A program made the position numbers and the translations under genes. A model generated the notes under the pieces. The model saw only the letters and a program-made list of their open reading frames with translations. It had not been told where the DNA came from and did not search any database. Of a DNA stretch of 39,298 bases, positions 19,498 through 26,467 are shown piece after piece. The stretch comes from Candidatus Dormiibacterota bacterium (GTDB lineage: Bacteria; Chloroflexota; Dormibacteria; Aeolococcales; Aeolococcaceae). Numbering within the stretch: the first letter of the stretch is position 1; every line of letters begins with the position of its first letter. The stretch is taken from contig DASXNK010000047.1 of NCBI GenBank assembly GCA_036495095.1, positions 1 through 39,298 of the forward strand, read 5' to 3'.

Positions 19498-19902
19498 GTG
19501 GCCCGACCGGCGATGAGACGGCCGGCGGCAGGGGCCGTGGCCGAGACGGATAGGCGGCGCGATCCACGGGTTGCGGCGGCGCTCTCGGTGGTGCCGGGCC
19601 TCGGCCAGCTCTACAACCTGCAGCCGGCCAAGGCGGCCTTCTTCCTGCTCGCCACCGTGTTCACCATCGGGCCGGCGGTGCTCCTCATCACCGCCGGTGA
19701 GCGGCTCGGCACGTCCCTGCTGCACCGGGGCGCCGGCACCCTGTTCCTGCTCCTCGCCCTCGGCTCGGTGATCGTCTTCCTGGCGCTGATCATGCTCGGC
19801 CTCGCCTTCTGGGCGAGCGCCGTGGTCGACGCCCGGCGGACCGCCGTCGAGATCACCGAGCGGCGGCTGAGCGGCGGCCGCTGGTGGTTCTTCCGGCTGT
19901 GA
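19498..19902 (+). CDS. Small membrane protein, TM2-domain-like
   Basis: A 134-residue membrane protein beginning at GTG 19498 with GGAGGTG seven bases upstream. A basic start is followed by VAAALSVVPGLGQLYNLQPA, the short amphipathic and turn pattern seen in TM2/DUF5683-like proteins. Two hydrophobic helices follow, near residues 45-65 and 80-108, then a polar C-terminal tail RRLSGGRWWFFRL. It overlaps the histidine kinase gene by GTGA. Its function is unknown; it may be an assembly factor or sensor partner. Confidence 0.68.
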   Translation: MARPAMRRPAAGAVAETDRRRDPRVAAALSVVPGLGQLYNLQPAKAAFFLLATVFTIGPAVLLITAGERLGTSLLHRGAGTLFLLLALGSVIVFLALIMLGLAFWASAVVDARRTAVEITERRLSGGRWWFFRL

Positions 19903-21338
19903 AGGGCAGCGGGCTGGGCGCGGCCCTCGAGGCCGTGCACCGCATCGTTCCCCCCGCCACCGGCGGGCTGGACTGGCCGCGTCACCGCACCGCGGGCCGG
20001 ATCCGGGGGGCGGAGCGCTCCCGCCTGCTGCACTACGAGCGGCTGATGGGGCTGGCCCATGCCACCGCGGTGCCGGTGGCGCTCGCCGCCACCCTGGTCC
20101 ACGTCGACTTCATCGCCCGGCCGGCGACGCCGTGGTTCCTGGTGCTGCTCGCCACCACCCTGCTCTACGCGGTCGTCTACCACTTCGTGCTGCCGCGGGT
20201 GTGGCTCTCGCACACCAAGGTGGTGCTCGGCCTGCTCGTCGACGTGGTCCTGACCACCGAGGTGGTGCGGCTCACCGGCTACCACATGAGCCTGCTCGTC
20301 TTCCTCTACTACCTGATCATCATCGCCTGCGCGCTCACCCTGGAGACGCGCACGCTGTACGCCATCTGCGCGGTGATCAGCATCGCGTTCTGCGCGGTGC
20401 TGCCCCTCGACCCGATCTTCGGCCAGGCCGCCCGCGCCCACGTGGGCCACGTCCTGCTGTTCCTCTTCTCGGTGTGGGGGGTGGGATTCATCAGCGCCGC
20501 CGGCGCGGCGCAGATCCAGGCGGCGGAGCGGCGGCTGATGAGCAGCGTGCGCACCCAGCGGGCGATCGCCGAGGAGAACGCGAAGCTCTCCGTCGACCTC
20601 GCCCGCCGCCTCGAGGAGAGCCGCGCCCTCACCGTCTCCCTCGACCGGCAGCGCGAGGAGATTCGGCGGCTCGCCGACATGGTCATCCACGCCCAGGAGG
20701 AGGAGCGCCGCCGGGTGGCCCGCGAGCTCCACGACGAGTCCAACCAGCTGCTCGCCGCGCTGATGACCACCGTCGACGCCGCCGAGGCGGCGGCGGCGCG
20801 GCAGGGCCAGCCCGAGCTCACCGCCACCCTGGCCCGGCTGCGCCGGCTCGCCAGCGCCACCCTGAGCGACCTCCAGCGGATCGCCACGGAGCTGCGGCCG
20901 CCCGCCCTCGACGAGTTCGGGCTGCTGCCGGCGCTCACCCGGCACGTCCGCGACCGCACCGCGGACACCCCGCTCGAGGCCTCCGTCGACACCGAGGGGC
21001 GGCCGCGCCGGCTGGCCGCGACCGTCGAGGTGGCCCTCTACCGGATCGCCCAGGAGGCACTCGCCAACGTGCAGAAGCACAGCGACGCCCGCAGCGTCCG
21101 GCTCCGGCTGCGCTTTCTCCCCGGTGCGGTGCGCCTCGATGTCACCGACGACGGCGTCGGCTTCGAGCTCGAGGGCGAGAACGGCGCCGCCCGCTCGCGG
21201 CTCGGGATCGCCGGGATGCGGGAGCGTGCCAGCATCGTCGGCGGCTCGCTTCGGGTGGCCAGCCGCCCCGGCGGGGGCACCCGGATCTCCGCCAGCATCC
21301 CGCTCGGCGAGGAGGCGCAGGTGAGCGCCCATGGCTGA
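19899..21338 (+). CDS. NarX/DesK-type membrane sensor histidine kinase
   Basis: A 479-residue kinase. The N-terminal part has about six membrane helices (residues 45-205) and no large outside loop, so the input is likely within or at the membrane. A coiled-coil linker (about 210-265) follows, then a HisKA_3 domain with phosphoacceptor H278 in RRVARELHDESNQLL, then a HATPase_c domain with ALYRIAQEALANVQKHS and VTDDGVGF and GLAGMRER-like (GIAGMRER). The GTG at 19899 overlaps the preceding gene. The paired NarL-type regulator gene follows with an eight-base overlap. Its position in the reductase operon suggests sensing of the electron-transport state, which is inference. Confidence 0.9.
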   Translation: MKGSGLGAALEAVHRIVPPATGGLDWPRHRTAGRIRGAERSRLLHYERLMGLAHATAVPVALAATLVHVDFIARPATPWFLVLLATTLLYAVVYHFVLPRVWLSHTKVVLGLLVDVVLTTEVVRLTGYHMSLLVFLYYLIIIACALTLETRTLYAICAVISIAFCAVLPLDPIFGQAARAHVGHVLLFLFSVWGVGFISAAGAAQIQAAERRLMSSVRTQRAIAEENAKLSVDLARRLEESRALTVSLDRQREEIRRLADMVIHAQEEERRRVARELHDESNQLLAALMTTVDAAEAAAARQGQPELTATLARLRRLASATLSDLQRIATELRPPALDEFGLLPALTRHVRDRTADTPLEASVDTEGRPRRLAATVEVALYRIAQEALANVQKHSDARSVRLRLRFLPGAVRLDVTDDGVGFELEGENGAARSRLGIAGMRERASIVGGSLRVASRPGGGTRISASIPLGEEAQVSAHG

Positions 21339-22069: not shown

Positions 22070-22236
22070 GTGCCGTCATCGCTTCGTTTCCGCTCGTGCA
22101 GGCTGTTCACGGTTTTGCACGGTGGTCCGTGGCCGCCGGCGTGGTCTGATCACCCGGCACCGTTCCATGGAATCCATTCGACGCGGTGCGCGCGGTCTGC
22201 ACCAGGCGCCGTGCCCACGACCTGGGGGACACGGCG

Positions 22237-23907
22237 ATGATTGCAACCGGAGGTGCCCGCGGCACCCGCGACGGCGGCAGCTGGGGGAGGGGACGCGCTC
22301 GCGCCGCGGCCGCCGGCCTGGGACTGATGGTGGCATTCGCGGCGGGCACGACCGTGCTCGCGTCGGCCGCGTCGTCGGCCACCGGCCCGCTGGAGCCGGT
22401 CATCGTGCGGGTCCAGCCCGGGAGCGGCCTCGGCGCCGCCGAGCAGGCGGTGCGCGACCTCGGCGGCCGGGTGGGGCTGCCGCTGCCGATCATCGACGGC
22501 TTCGCCGCCCGGCTCCCGCAGGCGGGGATCGCGGTCCTGCTCGCCACCGGCGGAGTGGTGTCGGTCGAGCCCGACGCGCCGGTCCGGCTCTCGGCGAGCG
22601 GCGGCTTCGACCCCGCCGGCGACGCCGGCTCGCTCTTCACCACCACCCTCGGCACCGGCGCCCAGGCGTTCTGGCAGAACGGCTTCACCGGACGCGGCGT
22701 GGACGTCGCCCTCATCGACTCCGGGGTGGCCGCCGTCGACGGCCTCTCGGTGCCGGGAAAGGTGGTCAACGGACCCGACCTCACCCTGGACGCGTTCTCG
22801 CCGGCGCTGCGGTCCGTCGACGGCTTCGGCCACGGCACCCACATGGCCGGGATCATCGCCGGGCGCGACACCGCCGCGGTGCCCGGCGCCTACGCGGGCG
22901 ACAGCGCCGACTTCGTCGGCATGGCCCCCGACGCGCGGCTGGTGAACGTCAAGGTCGCCGACGCCCAGGGCAACAGCGACGTCTCCCAGGTGATCGCGGG
23001 CATCGGATGGGTGGTCGACCATCGCACCGCCAACGGGCTCAACATCCGTGTCCTCAACCTCTCCTTCGGAACCAACAGCAGCCAGCCGTACACCCTCGAC
23101 CCGCTCGCCGCCGCCGCCGAGATGGCCTGGCGCCGGGGACTGGTCGTGGTCGCCTCGGCCGGGAACTTCGGGAACGCCAGCAACGGGCTGGCGGATCCCG
23201 CCACCGACCCCTACGTCATCGCCGCCGGAGCGGTCGACACCATGGGCACGCCGGCCACCACGGACGACGCCGTCGCCGCCTTCTCCAGCGCCGGCACCGC
23301 GGCCCGCACCCCCGACCTGGTCGCCCCCGGGACCCACATCGCCAGCCTGCGCGACCCGGGCTCGAGCCTCGACGTGCTCCACGGCGCCACCGCCACGGTG
23401 GGTGGCCGCTTCTTCCGCGGCAGCGGCACCTCCCAGGCGGCGGCGGTGGTCTCGGGGGCGGCCGCGCTGGTCCTCTCGCAGCGGCCGTCGGCCACCCCCG
23501 ACCAGGTGAAGGCGCTCCTCACCGGTGGCGCATCTCCGCTGCCCGGGACCAGCGCCCTGCTCCAGGGGGCGGGCCGGCTCCGGCTCCAGCCCCTGCTCAC
23601 CGCGCCCACCCCCGACACCCACCAGAGCTGGCCGGTGTCGACCGGGAGCGGCTCGCTCGAGCTGTCCCGCGGCTCCGGACCCGGCGGCCTCGATGCCGCC
23701 CTCGCCGCCCTGGTGGCCGCCCTCGGCGGCGGCTGGTCGGGTGGCGGCTGGTCGGGCGGCGGCTGGTCGGGCGGCGGCTGGTCGGGCGGCGGCTGGTCGG
23801 GCGGCGGCTGGTCGGGCGGCGGCTGGTCGGGTGGCGGCTGGTCGGGCGGCGGCTGGTCGGGCGGCGGCTGGTCGGGCGGCGGCTGGTCCACCGACTTCTG
23901 GGCCTGA
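22237..23907 (+). CDS. Secreted subtilisin-like (S8) serine peptidase with GGGWS repeat tail
   Basis: A 556-residue exported subtilase. Residues 15-50 are a signal peptide ending near ASAASSA. A short inhibitor-like propeptide follows, then the catalytic core with D161 (ALIDSG), H199 (GHGTHMAG), oxyanion N310 (SAGNFGN) and S399 (GSGTSQAA). After about residue 495 the protein becomes eleven copies of GGGWS, then ends TDFWA. The start is ATG 22237, with GGGGGA eight bases upstream; the earlier in-frame ATG at 22186 lacks one. The repeat tail resembles W/G-rich C-terminal repeats I recall on subtilases of related bacteria, which may bind the wall or surface. That role is not shown here. Confidence 0.9.
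23725..23889 (+). repeat. Eleven 15-base tandem repeats coding GGGWS
   Basis: Eleven perfect-period 15-base units (GGC GGC GGC TGG TCG) run from 23725 to 23889. Only silent changes occur: units 2 (23740) and 8 (23830) begin GGT rather than GGC, and the last unit ends TCC. The two GGT units are 90 bases apart, which suggests duplication of a six-unit block. The period is a multiple of three, so all frames stay open through the array. Confidence 0.95.
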
Positions 23908-23926
23908 GAGTGAGGTCGCCGGCACG

Positions 23927-26467
23927 ATGACAGCGGAGCGCGACCTGGGGGGCCGCCGTGCCCAGGCGCCGGTCTGGGCGCTGACCGCGGCCATCCTCGC
24001 CGGCGTCGCCGTCCTCCAGGTCATCGAGACCCGCCACCTGCGCGGAGTCGACGCGCCGGTGCACATCCCCTGGTACCTTCTCGCCGGGCTCTTCGTCGTC
24101 GCCGAATGGTGGCGGATCTGCCTGTACTTCCGGAGCAGCGCCCACTCCTTCTCGCTGAGCGAGATGCCGCTGGTGCTGGGGCTCTTCCTCGCCGACCCGT
24201 CGGACCTGGTGCTCGCCCGGGTGCTCGGCGCGCTCGTCGCCATGGGGCTGCTGCGCCGCCAGCCCCCGCTCAAGCTGCTGTTCAACCTCGGGCTCTTCGC
24301 GCTCGAGACCGAGGTGGCCGCGATCGCGGTCGGCCACCTGGTCCACCGCGGAGGTGCGCTCGGCCCGGGTGCGGGGGCGGCGGTGCTGCTCGTGGTGGCC
24401 GCCGTCTCACTGCTCGGGGTCGGCCTGATCATGCTCGCCGTCACCCTGTCGGAGGGACGGCCGCCGCGGCGGACGATGCTCCAGGGGCTGCTCTTCCAGC
24501 TCCTCGCCGGGGTGACCAACGCCAGCCTGGCGCTGCTCGCCGTCTTCGTGCTCTGGCGCGACGGCCACGAGCTCTGGCTGCTGCTGGCGCCGGTCGGCAC
24601 CCTGGTCGCCGGCTACGCCGCGTACGGCGCCGAGCGGCAGCGACACGAGCGGATGCAGCATCTCTACGAGTCGAGCGAGCTGCTCCAGCGCACCCCCACC
24701 GACGGCGCGGCAACCTCCGCGCTGCTCGCCCAGCTGTGCCGGGTCTTCCAGGCCGAGGTCGCCGAGGTGACCCTGCTCCCGCCCCCGGGTGGCGGCGCCG
24801 CCCTCCGCTCGATGCTGCGGCGCGACGCCTTCGTCGAGAGCGACCGGCGTGTCGACATCGGCCTGCTCGACGAGCTGGTGCACTTCGCGGTCGAGGAGCA
24901 GCGCGGGGTCCGGCTCGGTGGCCGGGAGGGAACGCTCCTGCCCGCGGTGCTGAGCAGCCGCCACCTCAAGGACGCGATGTTCATCGCCCTGCGCAGCGAG
25001 AGCCGGATCATCGGCACCATGCTGGTGGGCAACCGGCTCGGCGACCTCAACACCTTCAACGCCGAGGACCTCACCCTCTTCGAGACCCTCGCGGTGCAGG
25101 CCAGCGTCGCCTTCGAGAACGGCAGGCTCGAGGACCGGCTCAAGCACCAGGCGTTCCACGATCCCCTCACCAACCTTCCCAACCGGGCGCTGTTCAGCGA
25201 CCGCCTGGCCCACGCCCTGACCCGGCGGAGGGCGGTGGGCGGCCCTGGCGTCGCCGTCCTCTTCGTCGACCTCGACGACTTCAAGCTGGTCAACGACGAG
25301 CTCGGCCACTCCGCCGGCGACCAGCTGCTGCGCGCCGCCGGCGACCGCCTGGTGGCGGTGCTGCGTCCCTTCGACACCACCGCCCGGCTCGGCGGCGACG
25401 AGTTCGCGGTGCTGGTCGAGGACGTCGCCGGCCCCGCCGAGGCCGCCCGCGTCGCCGAGCGGATCGTCGAGACCCTGCGCGAGCCCTTCGTCCTCCAGGG
25501 TCGCGAGCTGGCGATGCACGCGAGCATCGGCGTGGCCCTCGCCGGTGAGGAGGAGGTGGACGGCGAGGAGCTGCTGCGCCGCGCCGACCTCGCCATGTAC
25601 CGGGTCAAGCAGCGAGGCAAGGGGGCGTTCGAGGTCTACCAGGCGAGCATGCAGGAGGTGTTGGTGCGGCGCCTCGAGCTGCGCACCGACCTGGAGCGCG
25701 CCGTCCAGCGTGGCGAGCTGTTCCTCCAGTACCAGCCCATCGTCCGCCTCGATGACGCCCGCATGGTGGGCGTCGAGGCGCTGGTGCGCTGGCAGCACCC
25801 GCTGCGCGGCGCCATGCCGCCCAACGACTTCATCCCTCTCGCGGAGGAGACGGGGCTGATCGTGGGGCTGGGGATCCACGTCCTCGAGATCGCCTGCCGC
25901 CAGGCCCGCGCCTGGCATGTGGACCACCCCGAGCACGGCGACCTGGGGATGAGCGTGAACCTGTCTCCCCGCCAGCTGCAGGACGAGGGATTCGTCCGCC
26001 AGGTGGCCCGGGTGCTCGCCGAGACCGGGCTCGACCCCCGGCTCCTCACCCTGGAGATCACCGAGAGCGTGATGGTGGACGGCGGGGCGCCCAGCGGCCG
26101 GCTGAACGAGCTGAAGGCCCTCGGCGTCCGGCTCTCCATCGACGACTTCGGCACCGGGTACTCCTCTCTCAGCGCGCTCCAGCATCTCCCCGTCGACAGC
26201 CTGAAGATCGCCAAGCCGTTCGTCGACGGCATCGCCGAGGACCCGCAGAAGCGCGCCTTCGCCCAGGCGATCGTGCGCCTCGGCAGGACCCTGAAACTCG
26301 ACCTGATCGCCGAGGGAGTCGAGCGGCGCGAGCAGCGCGACCACCTGCTCGACCTCGGCTGCCACATGGCCCAGGGCTACTACTTCGCCCGTCCCATGGA
26401 CGTCGCGGCGATGGAGGAGCTGCTCCGCGCCGGCGCCCGCCGGGAGTGCGCCGCCGCCGCCCGCTGA
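23927..26467 (+). CDS. Membrane GAF-GGDEF-EAL protein (c-di-GMP turnover)
   Basis: An 846-residue protein. Residues 1-225 contain about seven to eight membrane helices. Residues 245-395 look like a GAF domain ([12 protein letters not shown] to [12 protein letters not shown]). The GGDEF domain has an exact GGDEF at 489-493 and an RxxD inhibitory site at 480-483, so it could make c-di-GMP and be product-inhibited. The EAL domain has E617-[39 protein letters not shown] and AQGYYFARP, so phosphodiesterase residues are also in place. The start is ATG 23927, 19 bases after the subtilase stop; the long open frame upstream is a shadow of the repeat array. Which activity dominates cannot be told. Confidence 0.9.

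What the first reader, a model, noticed from the sequence alone, without database searches (positions are those of the whole stretch)
22237..23907. Subtilase with eleven silent-variant GGGWS repeats at the C-terminus
Exact 15-base periodicity with only silent changes (GGT at units 2 and 8, TCC at the last) indicates recent expansion, including a six-unit duplication, with selection or conversion keeping the protein repeat. Gly-Trp-Ser-rich tails on secreted proteases may bind cell wall, pili or polysaccharide.
Basis: partly seen in the sequence, partly recalled or inferred. Interest (0 to 1): 0.5.

Follow-up and report, generated by a model that had tools for sequence, protein, structure and literature searches.

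The report
Trp-tailed protease paired with membrane sensor
The tryptophan repeat at the end of this secreted protease is not a local oddity: close relatives in several bacterial groups carry a tryptophan every fifth residue there, and most sit next to a gene for a membrane signalling protein, which suggests an undescribed protease-and-sensor partnership.

Summary
ORF 22237-23907 is a complete subtilase (Pfam E 1.1e-40) ending in eleven GGGWS units with three silent changes. Relatives show what it is. Of 149 distinct close relatives, 140 carry at least four Trp at exact spacing 5 and one has spacing 6; of the other 8, five are cut by a contig end, one is masked, one is split and one has a run of three. 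The filler differs between groups (GGGWS, GSSWS, VSWDS, NWDHV, WYGSS, SSAWN); Trp does not. Of the 141 tailed genes, 103 are followed on the same strand by a ~210-aa multi-helix membrane domain (MASE9-like in part); 18 have room but lack it, 20 lack room. That domain carries GGDEF-EAL, histidine-kinase or SpoIIE outputs, or stands alone. Here it heads a GAF-GGDEF-EAL protein 19 bases downstream. Protease and membrane domain are co-inherited (Mantel r 0.84). Most likely the pair is an envelope sensory unit in which the Trp tail docks the protease to envelope or sensor; the pairing is shown, the docking inferred. The tail weakly resembles pentapeptide-repeat beta-helices, but AlphaFold gave no confident fold. 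The rows listed by my paper searches describe no such system.

The parts
22237..23907 (+). Subtilase gene (556 aa): signal sequence, propeptide, S8 domain, linker, Trp tail
22237..22377 (+). Probable signal sequence (aa 1-47), by inspection (basic stretch, then hydrophobic stretch); no signal predictor run
   Evidence: sequence; inference
22384..22590 (+). Propeptide-like domain (about aa 50-118)
   Evidence: Inhibitor_I9 E 0.0028, 18.7 bits against a cut-off of 21.2; model mostly confident over aa 51-110; best Foldseek hit ProN-Tk-SP
22690..23568 (+). Peptidase S8 domain (aa 152-444); D161 22717-22719, H199 22831-22833, S399 23431-23433
   Evidence: PF00082 E 1.1e-40; the three residues are invariant columns of 29 aligned sequences; their role as triad from established S8 motifs
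23725..23889 (+). Eleven GGGWS units
23890..23904 (+). Terminal TDFWA; W555 keeps the spacing of 5
23927..26467 (+). Neighbour: membrane domain + GAF + GGDEF + EAL protein (846 aa), 19 bases after the subtilase stop
   Evidence: GGDEF with RxxD five residues before it, and EALVR, present
23990..24632 (+). About 210-aa multi-helix membrane domain shared by the neighbours
19884..21338 (+). Upstream sensor histidine kinase; also upstream in two genus-mates
   Evidence: L034, L035
21331..21993 (+). NarL/LuxR-type response regulator; also upstream in two genus-mates
   Evidence: L034, L035

Best explanation
The gene encodes a secreted subtilisin-like protease whose C-terminal tail carries Trp at every fifth residue. 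With the gene 19 bases downstream it forms a two-gene sensory unit: the neighbour's membrane domain is the input and its cytoplasmic GAF-GGDEF-EAL part turns c-di-GMP over. I propose that the tail folds into, or assembles as, a repetitive Trp-lined surface that docks the protease on the cell envelope or on the sensor's outer face, so that protease state or activity sets the sensor. Shown: S8 domain with triad residues, conserved Trp spacing, conserved neighbour, co-inheritance, swapping of outputs. Inferred: secretion, self-activation, docking, direction of signal.
For: Tail: 141 of 149 distinct relatives have a spacing-5 (140) or spacing-6 (1) Trp tail; modal Trp spacing is 5 in 138 of 141 tails and 1673 of 2035 spacings are 5. 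Neighbouring units differ at 35% of first and second codon positions outside Trp, so Trp is kept although the DNA has diverged. Neighbour: membrane domain downstream on the same strand in 103 of the 121 tailed genes that have at least 1200 bases of flank or a hit; three more have it nearby (two divergent, one behind a tandem subtilase). In the window's genome the domain is found 3 times and 2 lie behind the two tailed subtilases. Mantel r 0.837 over 103 pairs that passed length filters (of 106), none of 999 permutations as high, maximum 0.105. Outputs vary while the membrane domain stays: of 106 neighbours 37 GGDEF+EAL, 13 GGDEF, 19 histidine kinase, 1 GGDEF+kinase, 3 SpoIIE, 13 without a detected output, 20 cut by an end.
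Against: No physical contact is tested. Fifteen of the 121 have no such domain in the fetched stretch; several lie beside unrelated genes such as Lon, glutamate-cysteine ligase, a sulfotransferase or an ABC transporter. The membrane domain also occurs without a tailed subtilase. The system is patchy: 43 of 121 relatives (11 of 44 good-quality ones) and 46 of 394 Actinomycete-class genomes match at the limits used. Operon linkage can mean co-expression only, and the Mantel value shows co-inheritance, which descent of an operon also gives. AlphaFold left the window's tail under pLDDT 50 and, for tails of 14 relatives, a mean of 42 with no residue above 70.
Confidence: 0.45

Rival explanations
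1. The tail is only an anchor (a pentapeptide-repeat-like beta-solenoid or a sticky Trp array) holding the protease on wall or matrix polymers; the neighbour is co-expressed because both serve surface life, without direct signalling between them.
For: The profile of 14 tails finds six solved chains at E up to 1, the first five pentapeptide-repeat proteins (four Qnr, one thylakoid lumenal 15 kDa protein; best E 0.0085). Eleven of the tails again put those five first (best E 0.02), while the same eleven reversed find none of them. The L061 tail matches Pentapeptide_4 at E 0.0023, under the cut-off. Genes without the membrane domain keep the tail.
Against: Does not explain why one membrane domain recurs with changing outputs and is co-inherited with the protease. 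AlphaFold shows no confident solenoid.
Confidence: 0.3
2. The tail, not the protease, is the signal: the protease releases or presents Trp-repeat peptide that the sensor detects.
For: In two species (G029, G031, one genus of the window's family) the gene before the membrane GGDEF-EAL gene is an 82-84 aa ORF that keeps the subtilase's start and two DGxSWS motifs but lacks the protease domain.
Against: pN/pS of that short ORF is 0.88, so it may be a decaying remnant; a search of 40 genomes around G029 found it only in these two with conviction, probably one event.
Confidence: 0.15
3. Low-complexity repeat produced by slippage in GC-rich DNA, without function.
For: Near-identical 15-base units in the window and array-wide filler changes within a genus.
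Against: Modal spacing 5 in 138 of 141 tails with diverged DNA; silent 1536 against non-silent 713.
Confidence: 0.04

Closest known systems
Peptidase family S8 subtilases such as Tk-SP (3afg) and subtilisin
   Same: Propeptide-like region, S8 domain and triad residues
   Different: No Pfam family covers the Trp tail, and the sensor neighbour is not a feature of the family
LapG/LapD (periplasmic protease and c-di-GMP receptor; PMC4359373, PMC3032545: only the abstract starts in the listing seen)
   Same: An extracytoplasmic protease linked to a membrane protein with c-di-GMP domains
   Different: LapG is a cysteine protease and LapD a degenerate receptor (recalled); here a subtilase, GGDEF and EAL motifs present in the window, a multi-helix membrane domain, and outputs that swap to kinases
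Pentapeptide-repeat proteins (QnrB1; Rfr fold)
   Same: Strict 5-residue period; in the weak match Trp columns fall mostly on Phe/Leu; the A(D/N)LXX motif is recalled
   Different: Trp in place of Leu/Phe, no match over a Pfam cut-off in the 5 tails tested, no confident model
MASE9 membrane-associated sensor domain (PF20972)
   Same: Multi-helix domain in front of signalling outputs; 9 of 39 members match at E 0.1 or better; L177 reaches 26.9 bits against a cut-off of 24.3
   Different: The window member has no match; of the ten members scanned only one passes the cut-off

Membership tests
Peptidase S8 subtilase | S8 domain with Asp-His-Ser triad | tested here: met
   PF00082 140.2 bits against 21.8; D161, H199, S399 invariant in the 29-row alignment
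Peptidase S8 subtilase | Proteolytic activity | not testable with these tools
   No assay
T7SS mycosin (TIGR03921) | Score over the curated cut-off | tested here: not met
   133.9 against 278.75 bits
Pentapeptide-repeat (Rfr) proteins | Match to a pentapeptide family over its cut-off | tested here: not met
   0 of 5 tails (best L061 18.4 against 38 bits); of 29 whole members one weak Pentapeptide_4 match, E 0.026
Pentapeptide-repeat (Rfr) proteins | Quadrilateral beta-helix fold | tested here: inconclusive
   No confident model of the tail; weak profile hits with this fold first, none for the reversed control
LapG/LapD system | LapG-type cysteine protease | tested here: not met
   The protease is S8
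LapG/LapD system | Receptor binds and sequesters the protease under c-di-GMP control | not testable with these tools
   Needs binding experiments
MASE9 domain | Match to PF20972 over its cut-off | tested here: inconclusive
   Window member: no match. L177: 26.9 bits against 24.3, met; the other nine scanned are under it or unmatched

The most novel reading that the evidence does not exclude
A new class of bacterial sensory system: secreted proteases with a Trp-every-five tail (a Trp-type repeat domain) are dedicated extracellular partners of a MASE9-like membrane receptor whose cytoplasmic outputs (c-di-GMP turnover, histidine kinase, SpoIIE phosphatase) are exchanged in evolution; the tail itself may be the element the receptor reads, as the protease-less short form in two species hints.
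Probability: 0.38. Interest if true: 0.85.

Novelty: new variant of a known kind. Interest (0 to 1): 0.68.

Why it matters
What many membrane c-di-GMP enzymes and histidine kinases sense is unknown (general knowledge); the review PMC8846402 (passages seen) lists MASE1 among sensory domains without discernible purpose. A conserved secreted neighbour encoded next to such a domain gives a concrete candidate input in Dormibacterota/Chloroflexi and Actinomycetota. The tail is also a candidate new repeat fold: strict Trp spacing with free filler, which a single structure could settle.

Tried and rejected
Mycosin of type VII secretion: under its cut-off. LapG/LapD membership: the protease family differs. 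Pure slippage: codon statistics over 141 tails.

Tail as a general module on other proteins: I classified the frames with six Trp at spacing 5 in the pattern loci held (L100-L139, L295-L321). The frames of 500 aa and more are subtilases and L127 is the tail part of a split one; the rest are 53-371 aa without a subtilase match and I read most of them as shadow frames, without testing each, for example the other strand of ordinary pentapeptide-repeat genes in G119. L113 (61 aa) is unclear. The match listings do not give a locus for each match (one search is cut), so this is no census.

Structure: both AlphaFold jobs left the tail unresolved. Plasmids: 4 of 72,556 records match, S8 peptidases of Bacillaceae-type hosts with at most 64% of the query covered, none reaching the tail.

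Papers: ten searches. Searches looked for this system or tail; two searches gave no paper, and no title or abstract start listed by 18 (1 of 1), 19 (20 of 35) or 22 (10 of 39) deals with it. The library misses most subscription papers. One search (MASE9) gave one unrelated paper.

Dropped before counts: repeated catalytic stretches (259 ORFs to 163) and 97% clusters (163 to 160); 11 ORFs under 190 bits. Those 11 have no tail and no membrane domain downstream, but 3 of them are pieces of one broken relative (L063), so only 8 are true controls. Pfam on downstream genes covered 20 chosen genes, not all, some of them wrong frames without matches; one search used home-made queries and a different limit. 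The first forward search used 14 tails and the reversed control 11 of them; one search repeats the forward search with the same 11.

Full report
The ORF 22237-23907 is open, starts with ATG and ends in eleven GGGWS units whose only changes are silent. TRF scores the array 314, the next in the window 70. A twelfth Trp in the final TDFWA keeps the spacing.

The protein is a subtilase. Pfam gives Peptidase_S8 at E 1.1e-40, the residues D161, H199 and S399 are invariant in the alignment of 29 relatives, and the predicted model, confident over most of residues 51-480 (not 114-121), finds ProN-Tk-SP and subtilisins. The best NCBIfam match, mycosin, stays under its cut-off. The signal sequence is my reading of the N-terminus.

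The window's genome holds a paralogue with a GGTWS tail (C118). Relatives were gathered three ways: the whole protein against the genome and 120 relatives (43 of 121 genomes match; 11 of 44 of good quality); the whole protein against genome contigs (34 loci; one of its six seed patterns lay in the tail); and the catalytic domain of L043 alone against 8 genomes chosen because they hold a locus (8 of 8) and 394 Actinomycete-class genomes (46 of 394 at E 1e-40). The last search cannot be biased towards tails. Record titles include Chloroflexi, Candidatus Dormiibacterota, Acidimicrobiia, Frankiales, Nocardioidaceae, Pseudokineococcus, Conexibacter and Paractinoplanes.

After removing duplicates and clustering at 97% there are 160 distinct ORFs, 149 of them at 190 bits or more to the catalytic profile. 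Of these 149, 140 have at least four Trp at exact spacing 5 and one (L094) has eighteen at spacing 6. The remaining eight: five end with the contig (L164, L154, L006, L261, L180); one reads N there (L021; tail units appear after the N in L086); one is a split frame (L127, tail in the next frame); one has a run of three (L233). In loci L140-L266, which came almost all from the catalytic-only searches (L185 came), 82 of 87 have tails and four of the five others are cut by a contig end.

The filler is not conserved: GGGWS, GSSWS, GGTWS, GTSWS, GASWG, VSWDS, NWDHV, WRMNA, WYGSS, SSAWN, GLRWN, GAGWR. Weighted over tails, the second residue after Trp is Gly in 60% and the direct neighbours are mostly Ser, Thr or Ala. 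Modal spacing is 5 in 138 of 141 tails; 1673 of 2035 spacings are 5 and 105 are 10. Adjacent units differ at 35% of codon positions 1 and 2 and 48% of position 3, and single-base differences are silent 1536 times against 713, where 28% silent would be expected. These comparisons are not independent, but the direction is plain: the spacing is held by selection, not only by fresh copying. Copying also happens: apparent counterparts in one genus read GGTWS nine times and GGQWS five times (the latter cut by a contig end).

The neighbour is the larger result. The window gene is followed after 19 bases by a GAF-GGDEF-EAL protein with several hydrophobic stretches in front. A profile of its first part, iterated on the downstream genes, defines a domain of about 210 residues with one invariant Asn and a nearly invariant Lys. 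It lies on the same strand behind 103 of the 141 tailed genes, median 88 bases from stop to domain start, at most 902; 18 have at least 1200 bases of flank and lack it, 20 have less. Of the 18, two have it divergently and one behind a tandem subtilase. Of the 11 low-scoring tail-less S8 ORFs none has it, but three of these are pieces of one broken relative. The window's genome has 3 such domains in 4.4 Mb, two of them behind its two tailed subtilases.

The membrane domain stays while the output changes: of 106 neighbours (103 behind tailed genes, 3 behind incomplete ones) 37 have GGDEF and EAL, 13 GGDEF only, 19 HisKA-HATPase, 1 GGDEF and kinase, 3 SpoIIE, 13 no detected output and 20 are cut (Pfam on chosen genes). 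Most of the 13 are short stand-alone copies in one family (f3), where a second copy in a longer frame follows, in several loci with GGDEF similarity. Pfam calls the domain MASE9 in 9 of 39 members at E 0.1 or better; one of them, L177, passes the cut-off, the window member does not match. Distances of protease and membrane domain correlate at 0.837 over 103 pairs; the highest of 999 permutations is 0.105. The membrane domain also occurs unpaired: of 20 further loci fetched none has an intact tailed subtilase, though L280 and L285 end at a contig end close upstream.

Two of those loci (L278 of G029, L279 of G031) have, in the subtilase's place, an 82-84 aa ORF with the start of the subtilase and two DGxSWS motifs. 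It hints that tail and signal sequence can outlive the protease, but pN/pS is 0.88, so decay is as likely.

What the tail is remains open. A profile of 14 tails finds six solved chains at E up to 1; the first five are pentapeptide-repeat proteins, best E 0.0085. Eleven of these tails again put the five first, best E 0.02; the same eleven reversed find none of them. AlphaFold leaves the window's tail under pLDDT 50 and 14 relatives' C-termini at a mean of 42, 38 of 138 residues at 50-70, with shallow alignments of 29 and 14 rows. I hold the beta-solenoid as a lead.

Mechanism: I think the pair is a sensory unit, the tail docking the protease to envelope or sensor. In the window GGDEF with RxxD before it and EALVR are present, so the protein probably makes and breaks c-di-GMP rather than being a pure receptor. 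Among neighbours with a detected domain, 37 of 45 GGDEF domains keep G[GS][DE]EF (14 of these 37 with RxxD) and 30 of 37 EAL domains keep the motif searched. The rows listed by my paper searches show no such system, in a library that lacks most subscription papers.

On the second check I added. They raised MASE9 from 'under the cut-off' to 'met by one member' and gave the matched forward control.

Noticed in passing
L094 6317-8257 (G119): A distant relative has a Trp tail with period 6 (GGQTWT type, eighteen in a row) instead of 5 and no membrane-domain neighbour in the fetched stretch.
   Followed up: partly
L278 5183-5437 (-) and L279 6114-6362 (+): Protease-less short ORFs with the subtilase start and two DGxSWS motifs before the membrane GGDEF-EAL gene.
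   Followed up: partly
L071 7888-12501 (G005 C130): Subtilase tail and neighbour lie in one open frame of 1538 aa; the end of the tail looks frame-shifted, so a fusion or a sequencing error.
   Followed up: no
L063 3938-5662: A relative broken over several frames, in one of which the S8 domain runs straight into an EAL domain.
   Followed up: no
L040 29-4843: Two tailed subtilases in tandem before one membrane GGDEF-EAL gene.
   Followed up: no
window 22150-24600 (-): An 816-aa open frame opposite the subtilase (the repeat reads as Ala/Arg/Pro units); probably a GC-rich shadow frame.
   Followed up: no
L113 1411-1593 (-) (G010 C20 near 30450): A 61-aa frame with WSSGG/WSDCV units resembling a tail without a protease.
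   Followed up: no
L267-L273: A second group of the membrane domain (163-174 bits, most with GGDEF or EAL in the frame) without a tailed subtilase next to it; its partner, if any, was not sought.
   Followed up: no
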